From an uncultured Poribacteria bacterium (GTDB lineage: Bacteria > Poribacteria > WGA-4E > WGA-3G), in the NCBI GenBank assembly GCA_951828515.1, contig OX639992.1, forward strand, positions 868,001-932,000: a DNA stretch of 64,000 bases, in the 5' to 3' direction. Both the position numbers and the translations under genes were made by a program. Within the stretch, counting starts at the first letter, position 1. Each line of letters begins with the position of its first letter. Shown here piece after piece: positions 56,795-59,878 of this stretch. Below the pieces are notes generated by a model that worked only from the letters and a program-made list of their open reading frames with translations, had not been told where the DNA came from and did not search any database.

Positions 56795-57604
56795 CTATTC
56801 AAGAATACGTTCCATACGCTCGCGAATCCACGCTTTGTGCTCAGGATGTGTGTGGATATAGAAGGTACCGTTCTGGATCGCTTTATAGACATGCTCCGCC
56901 ACCTCCGCAGGTGACAATCCCGCTTCCATCTCGGCGCGAGTATTCCGTGAATCTCCAATAACGGTTTCCTGTGGTTGCTTCTTCTCTGCTGGATTTTGCA
57001 ATGCGTCCGGACGATTTCGGGCGGCATCCAGAATTCCCGTGCGAACCCATCCCGGACACAGCACATGCACCTGAATATTGGCCCCTTTCTGCGCCAATTC
57101 ATCGGCGAGGGTCTCCGAAAGCGCGACGACACCATGCTTACTTACTTTATAGATGCCTTCGCCACTACCACCCACCAAACCCAAAATGGAAGCAGTATTC
57201 ACGATATGACACGCGTTCCCTTGTGCGAGCATGTCGGGAACGAACGCTCGGATGCCGTGGATAACGCCCCACAGGTTAACGCCTAACACCCATTCCCAGT
57301 CAGCTACGGTATGTTCCCAAACAGGTCGGCTGCAAACAACGCCAGCGTTGTTGCAGAGGATATGCACCGCGTCGAAAGCCTCTAACGTCCGTGCAGCAAG
57401 GTTTTCGACCTCTGCCGCATTTGAGACATCCGTTCTGACGGCGAGAACCGTCGCACCCTTAGCCTTTAAGTCTGCCGCAAGTTTGACTAACGGTTCCTCT
57501 GCAACGTCAGCGAGAACGACTCTCATGCCTTCCCCAGCGAACCGTTCTGCCAATCCTTTCCCAATACCGCTCGCCGCGCCCGTAATAACAGCAACCTTTT
57601 GCAT
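56795..57604 (-). CDS. Short-chain dehydrogenase/reductase
   Basis: A 269-residue classical SDR: TGAASGIG (8-15), NNAG (85-88), catalytic S139 (NTASI), Y152 and K156 (GIYKVSKHG). Asp 33 after VVLAD suggests NAD(H) preference. The start is ATG 57604; TTG 57613 would overlap the end of the upstream DUF169 gene. It is the last gene of a leftward run from the DMFase-like protein through radical SAM and DUF169. Substrate unknown. Confidence 0.9.
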   Translation of the reverse strand: MQKVAVITGAASGIGKGLAERFAGEGMRVVLADVAEEPLVKLAADLKAKGATVLAVRTDVSNAAEVENLAARTLEAFDAVHILCNNAGVVCSRPVWEHTVADWEWVLGVNLWGVIHGIRAFVPDMLAQGNACHIVNTASILGLVGGSGEGIYKVSKHGVVALSETLADELAQKGANIQVHVLCPGWVRTGILDAARNRPDALQNPAEKKQPQETVIGDSRNTRAEMEAGLSPAEVAEHVYKAIQNGTFYIHTHPEHKAWIRERMERILE

Positions 57605-57609
57605 GACGT

Positions 57610-58296
57610 TCAAATCCCTGCTTGGCGTTGTTGGTGATACGCCTCTAACGCTTGATTCGCATTCACAATCGTTTCCAACTTCTCAACGAGTGCGTCGATG
57701 TGTTTGCCCGGGAAAGCGAAGTAGAAATCATCATCGGAAAGTGCCGTGTAGACGCGGTTGCCGATACACCCCAAACTACTTACACTCCGTCCGCCTTGTA
57801 TGACAGCAGGAATCGCCGCACACGTCGGGCGTCCCATAACTCCGTTTTCCGTACCGATTCCAGCCGCAGTCGCGGCTTCTGCCAAGAGCATCATCTGTCT
57901 CGGTGTGCCAGAGATGATGACGACATCAGGAGTGCCAATAGCATCTGATAGCGGAGCATAGACTGCACTTTTGAAAGGCGTTTCCCGTGTTGGAATACCG
58001 GGGACTTCTTCCATAGCGATGTAGCCGAGTTCACCCATCAGTCCAAGCGTGTTTTCGAGTTCCTCCATTTGCGTAGGTGGTAACTCAACGTTGTGCGTGT
58101 AGCACCCGATCGGACAGTTGTAATGGTCGGAGGCTTCGGTGTAAAAGGTTTTACCCTCCGCCGCGCGTCGCCAATAGGTGCAACCGGAGGCTTCGACTTT
58201 TTCCACACGGGAAACACCATCTGGTTGTGCATCGTGAAACGTTACAGCAACAGGGACCGTTTCCAAATTAAGCAATTGTTGAATCTGTTCTGACAT
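57610..58296 (-). CDS. DUF169 family protein
   Basis: A 228-residue protein; start ATG 58296 with AGGAG 5 bases upstream and the family start MSEQIQQLLNLETVPVAVTF. Conserved cysteines stand at C39 (ASGCTYW), C61 and C65 (NCPIGCYTH), C159 (GRPTCAAI) and C177 (LGCIGNRVY), which could bind metal or a cluster. Function of the family is unknown; it is frequent in anaerobes and uncultured phyla. It lies between the SDR and the radical SAM selenoprotein gene, all leftward. Confidence 0.9.
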   Translation of the reverse strand: MSEQIQQLLNLETVPVAVTFHDAQPDGVSRVEKVEASGCTYWRRAAEGKTFYTEASDHYNCPIGCYTHNVELPPTQMEELENTLGLMGELGYIAMEEVPGIPTRETPFKSAVYAPLSDAIGTPDVVIISGTPRQMMLLAEAATAAGIGTENGVMGRPTCAAIPAVIQGGRSVSSLGCIGNRVYTALSDDDFYFAFPGKHIDALVEKLETIVNANQALEAYHQQRQAGI

Positions 58297-58480: not shown

Positions 58481-59878
58481 TTAAAATTGGATTGGAGCGA
58501 ACTGCCCATCGGTAGGTTCCGCTCAGCAGAACCATGCTTCGGTGAGACGTGGCGCGGGTAGATGCGTTTCTTTTCTCTGTGTTGGTGGAGACTGCCCTTG
58601 CATATCGGCGGCGAGTGTCCATATCCGATAAAAAGTTTCCAGTGTATCCACACCGTCGCGTGCGTCGCTTTCAACGAGGGCACTGACCGTTTTATGAAGT
58701 TCGTCCATCCGTACATCGGGGTGTGCCCACGTATAACTAAAGGAAGTTTCGTCAAGGGCGAGTGAAAGTGCTTTCGTTTCGGGACGATTGAGCAGGTATG
58801 AACCGGGCGGAATCAACAACCGAACGGCGTACTGCACCGGGTCAACGTGATACACAAGACCGCGCATATCAATAAACTGGAGGAGTTCGAGGTAGTCGTC
58901 TAACGTTGTCCACGGCGTAAACGGCACCCATGTCGGACGCAATGCTATCCCAGCTCCGTGAACAATGTCGATTGCCTCCGCTACATCGGCACGTGTGTGG
59001 TGCTTCTCCAAAATCGTCAGGACCTGTTCGTTCAACGTTTCAACCGCGGAGATGACGAACCGACATCCGAGGTGCGCGAATTCTGAAAAGTGTTCTCTGT
59101 TTTTCAGAATGTGCTCGATCTTGGTTGTAAAGTCGAAGGTGAGGCTTGGAAAAGCCTCGTGCATCGCGCGGAGAATACGGAGTCCGTGCGTCGGACCGTT
59201 GAGAAAATCTGGGTCGCCAAAGGTGATGTGTGTCGCACCTTCCACGACCTGTTCCTGTATTTCAGCGAGTACAATGTCGCGTTGCACAGCGAGAAACTTG
59301 CCGTTGTAGACTGGCGGAATAGGGCAGTGCGTGCAGAGATGCTTGCACCCGTGTGTCGTCTCTGTGTAACCGACGGTTTGAACCTCACCTTCGTCCTCAA
59401 ATTGCGCGTATGTTTCCAGCGGCGGTAGTTCCGCAAAGAAATCGGATTCTTGTGCCTCAGACTGTTCTTCCTTCGCAATGGATTCCACCAGCGCAACGAG
59501 TTGTGTTGAATCTGTGCCTGCGATACAAAAATCGACACCGTGTGAAAGCAGATAATCGGCGTTGAGTGTTGCGTAAAGTCCGTACATGCAAATAGAGGCA
59601 TCCGAATTGATTTCTCGTATCCGGTGCAAGAGATGAACCCCCAGTCGCAAGGCAGTATGCATCGGGACGGATATCCCGATGAAACGTGCGCGCTCGACCT
59701 TTTCGATATCCAGTGGTTCGACAGCAATATCAATTACCTCTGGAGCGAATCCCGCCGCTTCAAGGGCACGAAGCGGACGAGAGAGCCCGATCGGTCGGTG
59801 TCCGAGTTCGTAGCAGGAGATTAGGAGGACTGCACCGGGGTCCTGTATCACTGAGGAGGTTCGCGCTTGCGTTTCCAT
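58481..59878 (-). CDS. CUAEP-tail radical SAM selenoprotein with B12-binding-like domain
   Basis: 465 residues if the in-frame TGA at 58523-58525 is read as selenocysteine (U452); 451 if it is a stop. An N-terminal cobalamin-binding-like Rossmann domain (about 15-130: LLISCYELGHRPIGLSRPLRALE) lacks an obvious D-x-H-x-x-G. The radical SAM cluster motif is C178-K-H-L-C182-T-H-C185. After TGA the frame continues A-E-P-T-D-G-Q-F-A-P-I-Q-F to TAA, so the tail is F-C-U-A-E-P, the mark of the CUAEP/CCAEP-tail radical SAM family. No clear Shine-Dalgarno; possibly leaderless. Confidence 0.88.
58495..58525 (-). promoter_or_regulatory. Candidate bacterial SECIS hairpin following the UGA
   Basis: From the UGA, GAGC-(G)-GAAC pairs with GTTC-GCTC, with one bulged G. 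The inner loop can form a CC/GG mini-stem with apical loop GATG about 16 bases from the UGA. Position and shape fit bacterial SECIS elements. Confidence 0.65.

What the first reader, a model, noticed from the sequence alone, without database searches (positions are those of the whole stretch)
58481..58525. Radical SAM gene reads through TGA as selenocysteine to give a C-U-A-E-P tail
Seen: on the minus strand, TGC-TGA is followed in frame by GCG-GAA-CCT and eight more codons to a TAA at 58481-58483. The conceptual tail is F-C-U-A-E-P. A bulged hairpin GAGC(G)GAAC/GTTCGCTC begins at the TGA. Known: a B12-type radical SAM family is defined by exactly this CUAEP or CCAEP tail. Inference: the organism uses selenocysteine and the gene end is usually mis-annotated.
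Basis: partly seen in the sequence, partly recalled or inferred. Interest (0 to 1): 0.85.

Follow-up and report, generated by a model that had tools for sequence, protein, structure and literature searches.

The report
Selenocysteine-tailed radical SAM enzyme, Poribacteria
This sponge-bacterium gene very probably reads through a stop codon to insert selenocysteine near its end; the enzyme belongs to a named but uncharacterised family, and its gene travels with two others, which points to an undescribed pathway.

Summary
Confirmed. The minus-strand gene at 59878-58481 is a B12-binding/radical SAM protein with an in-frame TGA at 58525-58523, followed by AEPTDGQFAPIQF and TAA. It scores 622 bits against NCBIfam NF040546, "CUAEP/CCAEP-tail radical SAM (seleno)protein" (cut-off 500). 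The genome has tRNA-Sec, SelA, SelB and SelD. All 50 tail-bearing copies found in the phylum carry exactly one TGA. Homologues in other phyla read Cys there and keep A/S-E-P. Past the UGA the codons evolve as protein.

Another stem-loop, 19 nt after the UGA, covaries across phyla and fits the bacterial SECIS loop, spacing and G rules, although the window's own copy is weak.

The kind is known; this is a new member. New here is a gene set. DUF169 lies beside the gene and, in the window's family, occurs in 39/39 genomes with it and 1/20 without. An unlinked ATP-grasp/L-amino-acid-ligase gene occurs in 49/50 with it and 5/35 without, and sits next to it in other phyla. The closest named relative is ArsL (arsinothricin synthesis). 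I propose a chalcogen or metalloid amino-acid pathway; the chemistry is untested.

The parts
58481..59878 (-). CUAEP-tail B12-binding/radical SAM selenoprotein, 465 aa with Sec at 452; B12-binding residues 19-130, radical SAM residues 173-312, CxxxCxxC at residues 178/182/185
   Evidence: NF040546 622.5 bits over cut-off 500; Pfam B12-binding and Radical_SAM over cut-off; translation
58523..58525 (-). UGA codon read as selenocysteine 452
   Evidence: Cys or Sec in every tail-bearing homologue examined; complete Sec machinery in the genome
58484..58522 (-). read-through tail AEPTDGQFAPIQF (TAA at 58481-58483)
   Evidence: differences per codon position 0.05/0.10/0.52 in the tail against 0.72/0.70/0.72 beyond the stop in poribacterial copies
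58495..58507 (-). proposed SECIS apical stem-loop GGGC-AGUUC-GCUC, loop 19 nt after the UGA with G at loop position 2
   Evidence: covariation score 0.481, no shuffle of 500 as high, 23 cells with both sides changed; Cys homologues lack the helix; weak in the window copy itself, about -4 kcal/mol
   Evidence: 210 of 500 shuffles reach the observed covariation score
57610..58296 (-). DUF169 protein (PF02596), 228 aa, four invariant Cys; downstream neighbour on the same strand
   Evidence: Pfam; next to CUAEP in Poribacteria (downstream) and Nitrospirota (upstream); co-occurrence 39/39 against 1/20 in the family; alignment
56795..57613 (-). short-chain dehydrogenase/reductase, next gene in the run
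   Evidence: Pfam adh_short; follows DUF169 in 11 poribacterial loci; seen only in Poribacteria

Best explanation
The gene encodes a true selenoprotein of the CUAEP/CCAEP-tail B12-binding/radical SAM family. SelB with Sec-tRNA decodes the UGA 14 codons before the end, directed by a short stem-loop about 19 nt downstream, so that the protein ends ...EAWF-Cys-Sec-Ala-Glu-Pro... Shown by sequence evidence: family membership, Sec machinery, Cys/Sec exchange at the site, protein-like evolution past the UGA, and a covarying stem-loop. Inferred: the Cys-Sec pair, the only strictly conserved Cys/Sec outside the cluster motif, works in or near the active site as a soft ligand or nucleophile for a metalloid or chalcogen substrate, as the RCCLKC tail of the related ArsL might for arsenite. 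It would act in a pathway with the DUF169 protein and an ATP-grasp amino-acid ligase, in which the radical SAM enzyme builds an unusual amino acid that the ligase then joins to a partner. That the UGA encodes Sec: about 0.97. That the three genes share a pathway: about 0.75. The chemistry: about 0.25. The confidence given below is for the selenoprotein and family statement.
For: NF040546 match to the tail. tRNA-Sec, SelB, SelA and a SelD with its own TGA. 50 of 50 tail-bearing copies in 49 genomes of the phylum have exactly one TGA (read directly for the window and 29 of those loci). 24 Sec and 52 Cys tails in 76 loci, all C[CU][AS]EP. tRNA-Sec above cut-off in 6 of 6 non-poribacterial genomes with a Sec tail and 1 of 7 with a Cys tail. 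Codon-position signature. Stem-loop covariation with G-C, U-A and C-G at one pair. Gene set: DUF169 and ATP-grasp co-occurrence and linkage. ArsL relation: 330 bits to NF040542, same fold region, CC in both tails, next to each other in the tree. Model pLDDT 90.8, closest solved folds AprD4, OxsB and TsrM.
Against: No protein-level evidence of Sec. The tail is itself coding, so part of the nucleotide conservation reflects protein. Loci were found partly with a pattern made from the tail (EAWFCCAE), which could hide tail-less relatives outside the phylum; the phylum scan used the whole profile. Co-occurrence counts treat related genomes as independent. No ars genes were found as recurrent neighbours, so the metalloid idea rests on ArsL alone.
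Confidence: 0.95

Rival explanations
1. The TGA is an ordinary stop and the enzyme ends at ...WFC; the A-E-P beyond it is a relic.
For: Standard gene calling ends there, and a public record of a homologue is annotated that way.
Against: Constant TGA with an intact downstream frame in 50 copies, protein-like codon evolution after it, Cys in the same place in other phyla, and complete Sec machinery (3, 11, 14, 15).
Confidence: 0.02
2. The reader's hairpin starting at the UGA is the SECIS.
For: It can form in the window, and the lowest-energy fold there (-11.8 kcal/mol) contains related pairs.
Against: No covariation above shuffles (score 0.118 against 0.114), several of eight pairs broken in 13-25 of 36 sequences; a 13-nt loop starting 7 nt after the UGA breaks the published limits of 3-9 nt and 16-37 nt.
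Confidence: 0.1
3. The protein is an ordinary cobalamin-dependent radical SAM methylase and the Cys-Sec pair is a redox or cluster ligand, unrelated to metalloid chemistry.
For: Closest solved folds include the B12 enzymes OxsB and TsrM, and AprD4; weaker matches to hopanoid methylase HpnR and the P-methylase family PhpK. NfuA-like iron-sulfur scaffold genes lie near 19 homologues outside Poribacteria.
Against: ArsL is much the closest named relative (330 bits against 40 or less for the methylases) and is reported to transfer 3-amino-3-carboxypropyl rather than methyl (PMC8552651).
Confidence: 0.4

Closest known systems
NCBIfam NF040546, CUAEP/CCAEP-tail radical SAM (seleno)protein
   Same: Full-length match over cut-off including the tail; Cys-Sec-Ala-Glu-Pro
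   Different: Nothing that defines the family differs; here from Poribacteria, with DUF169 and SDR neighbours
ArsL, arsinothricin biosynthesis radical SAM protein (NF040542, RCCLKC tail)
   Same: 34-37% identity over 82% of the protein in public plasmid records, same domain order, CxxxCxxC, CC pair in a C-terminal tail; ATP-grasp genes near some copies
   Different: 330 bits, below the 450 cut-off; tail is RCCLKC not CUAEP; no ArsM or ArsQ recurrent beside CUAEP
Other radical SAM selenoproteins listed in a 2026 review: rSAM_SeCys (TIGR04167) and TrsS (NF045646)
   Same: Radical SAM proteins predicted to carry Sec
   Different: Other families, neither among the window protein's NCBIfam matches; searches of the review's main text for 'NF040546', 'CCAEP' and 'rSAM' found nothing

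Membership tests
NF040546 CUAEP/CCAEP-tail radical SAM (seleno)protein | Profile score over the curated cut-off of 500 bits | tested here: met
   622.5 bits; 613 bits in the genome scan with 1 TGA
NF040546 CUAEP/CCAEP-tail radical SAM (seleno)protein | C-terminal C-U/C-A-E-P tail | tested here: met
   FCUAEP in the window; C[CU][AS]EP in 76 of 76 full-tail loci
NF040546 CUAEP/CCAEP-tail radical SAM (seleno)protein | B12-binding and radical SAM domains with CxxxCxxC | tested here: met
   Pfam over cut-offs; C178, C182, C185 invariant in 75 sequences
Bacterial selenoprotein | tRNA-Sec, SelA, SelB, SelD in the genome | tested here: met
Bacterial selenoprotein | Cys at the UGA position in homologues | tested here: met
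   52 Cys-type loci
Bacterial selenoprotein | SECIS: 3-9 nt loop, 4-16 bp stem, G in the first two loop positions, 16-37 nt spacing, MFE at or below -7.5 (rules from PMC13188914) | tested here: inconclusive
   Loop 5 nt, stem 4 bp, G at position 2 and spacing 19 nt are met and the stem covaries; energy is met in 16 of 36 distinct tails but not in the window's
Bacterial selenoprotein | Sec present in the protein | not testable with these tools
   needs mass spectrometry or 75Se labelling
ArsL (NF040542) | Profile score over 450 bits | tested here: not met
   330 bits
ArsL (NF040542) | RCCLKC tail | tested here: not met
   tail is CUAEP
Cobalamin-dependent radical SAM enzyme | Binds cobalamin | not testable with these tools
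   B12-binding Pfam match only just over cut-off, 34.1 against 32.1 bits

The most novel reading that the evidence does not exclude
CUAEP, DUF169 and the ATP-grasp ligase form an undescribed, widely spread pathway in which a selenocysteine-tailed relative of ArsL builds an unusual (metalloid- or chalcogen-containing) amino acid and the ligase turns it into a peptide-like product, with the Cys-Sec pair holding the inorganic substrate.
Probability: 0.2. Interest if true: 0.75.

Novelty: new member of a known kind. Interest (0 to 1): 0.45.

Why it matters
The family exists as a named profile, but the search of the held open library found no paper that names it ('CUAEP': 0). Treating the codon as a stop removes the conserved Cys-Sec tail from public annotations. 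The co-occurring DUF169 and ligase genes give a concrete handle on its function, and the natural Sec/Cys variants in a relative of an arsenic-carbon-bond-forming enzyme make the role of selenium in such chemistry directly testable.

Tried and rejected
Rfam search of the region gave only chance matches below cut-off and no SECIS family. Literature searches for 'CUAEP' and 'RCCLKC' returned nothing; two papers by Haft and colleagues that may cover related families are not held. DUF169: no solved relative by sequence, and a model of pLDDT 83.9 had no significant fold match. One DUF169 mention in a selenium comparative-genomics paper is a single row of a gene-association table and was not used as evidence. 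Arsinothricin operon genes: only ATP-grasp recurs beside CUAEP; ArsM-like hits in two loci and one N-acetyltransferase hit were set aside. The careful tree did not finish; the quick tree was used.

Full report
Observation. On the minus strand the reading frame that starts at 59878 runs to TGC-TGA at 58528-58523 and, past the TGA, continues GCG GAA CCT ACC GAT GGG CAG TTC GCT CCA ATC CAA TTT TAA. The tail is CUAEPTDGQFAPIQF; ten codons, not eight, lie between CCT and the stop. Of 2251 TGA triplets in the window on either strand this is the only one followed by A-E-P.

Family. The protein with the TGA read through scores 622.5 bits against NF040546, whose name is CUAEP/CCAEP-tail radical SAM (seleno)protein and whose cut-off is 500, matching to profile position 467 of 468. 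Pfam finds a B12-binding domain (just over cut-off) and a radical SAM domain. The nearest other named family is ArsL at 330 bits, under its cut-off of 450.

Genome. The window lies in a single-contig genome of 5.85 Mb, 95.1% complete. It has tRNA-Sec at 78 bits, with anticodon TCA by a second program; SelB, about 180 bases upstream of it; SelA; and SelD, whose own frame holds a TGA. There is one CUAEP copy.

Relatives. In 85 genomes of the phylum, 48 have a copy over the cut-off; 50 tail-bearing copies in 49 genomes all contain exactly one TGA and no other stop, and for the window and 29 fetched loci I read the TGA and the AEP directly. In 76 loci with a complete tail from several phyla the motif is C[CU][AS]EP throughout: 24 with TGA (Poribacteria, Gemmatimonadota, Latescibacterota, one Planctomycetota) and 52 with Cys (Nitrospirota, Actinomycetota, Chloroflexota and others). 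The locus search used a tail pattern among six, so it is not neutral on the tail outside the phylum; the phylum search used the whole profile. Six of six genomes tested with a Sec tail outside Poribacteria have tRNA-Sec over the cut-off, and one of seven with a Cys tail does. On the quick tree Sec and Cys types are strongly clustered (4 changes in all) and ArsL sits beside the mixed Sec/Cys group, with long branches and several weak forks.

Coding beyond the UGA. Among poribacterial copies, pairwise differences per codon position are 0.05, 0.10 and 0.52 in the tail, against 0.72, 0.70 and 0.72 beyond the stop; codon changes in the tail are mostly synonymous in this frame and hardly ever in the other two.

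SECIS. All 36 distinct Sec tails align without gaps. A stem at columns 18-22 with 28-32 (counted from the T of TGA) has 90% of cells paired, 23 cells with both sides changed against 7 expected, and a covariation score of 0.481 that none of 500 shuffles reaches; one pair is G-C, U-A or C-G in different lineages. The same columns pair in only 43% of cells in Cys homologues. The loop of five starts 19 nt after the UGA, with G second (first in the Gemmatimonadota/Latescibacterota type, whose loop is GGAAA). This fits the loop, spacing and G rules given in PMC13188914. Relatedness inflates shuffle tests, and the tail is also under protein selection.

Conserved residues. Across 75 sequences the strictly conserved cysteines are C178, C182, C185 of the cluster motif and C451 with C/U452 of the tail. 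The model is confident (pLDDT 90.8; 78 for the block 451-460), and its closest solved folds are AprD4, OxsB, TsrM and MiaB.

Gene set. DUF169 follows CUAEP on the same strand in the window (57610-58296) and in most poribacterial loci, and precedes it in 8 of 10 Nitrospirota loci. The genome has a single DUF169. In the window's family DUF169 is in 39 of 39 CUAEP-positive and 1 of 20 CUAEP-negative genomes; 30 of 39 copies are within 2.5 kb. The 39 count two genomes with fragments only. The DUF169 proteins share four invariant cysteines. An ATP-grasp protein with an L-amino-acid-ligase C-terminal domain lies directly beside CUAEP in all 10 Nitrospirota and many actinobacterial and chloroflexotal loci. 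In the window's genome its 48%-identical counterpart is about 4 Mb away, yet across 85 genomes it is present in 49 of 50 with CUAEP and 5 of 35 without. Four of those five exceptions are incomplete or fragmented genomes or, in G055, retain DUF169 at a contig start. Genomes are not independent, so the p-values (about 1e-16) are only indicative; but an unlinked gene with matching presence, linked in other phyla, is good evidence for a shared pathway.

Mechanism. [quoted passage not shown] Both proteins end in a Cys-rich tail with a CC (or CU) pair, and ATP-grasp genes of the same broad fold lie near some ArsL genes. I infer that CUAEP makes an unusual amino acid from SAM and a soft inorganic substrate held by Cys-Sec, and that the ligase uses it. 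This is a guess from kinship: no arsenic genes recur beside CUAEP, and a methylase or other B12 radical reaction is about as likely.

Verdict. The finding is right in substance. It is a new member of a family already named by NCBI; the literature search found no paper on it. The SECIS assignment is corrected, and the three-gene association is, as far as I could check, new.

Noticed in passing
G000:C1:4977731-4978654: SelD of this genome has one in-frame TGA, so it is probably a selenoprotein itself.
   Followed up: no
L139 (G000:C1:4935860-4937095): Unlinked ATP-grasp/L-amino-acid-ligase gene whose presence across the phylum tracks CUAEP, and whose relatives sit beside CUAEP in other phyla.
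   Followed up: yes
L026:2187-2783, L037:7510-8448, L046, L047 and 15 more loci: NfuA-like iron-sulfur scaffold genes lie near CCAEP/CUSEP genes in 19 non-poribacterial loci.
   Followed up: partly
L135:7950-9386: Thermomicrobium roseum CUAEP gene is annotated as ending at the UGA; the DNA continues *AEPLEDPSGPVASQ with a strong stem-loop.
   Followed up: partly
L037:5968-7446: Planctomycetota copy with a CUSEP tail, a Sec lineage separate on the tree.
   Followed up: partly
L047: Chloroflexota genome with tRNA-Sec over the cut-off but a Cys tail, so Sec machinery does not force Sec here.
   Followed up: no
L034:3712-6168 and related loci: Two adjacent homologous ~400-aa proteins with no Pfam or NCBIfam match sit just downstream of Gemmatimonadota/Latescibacterota CUAEP genes on the opposite strand.
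   Followed up: no
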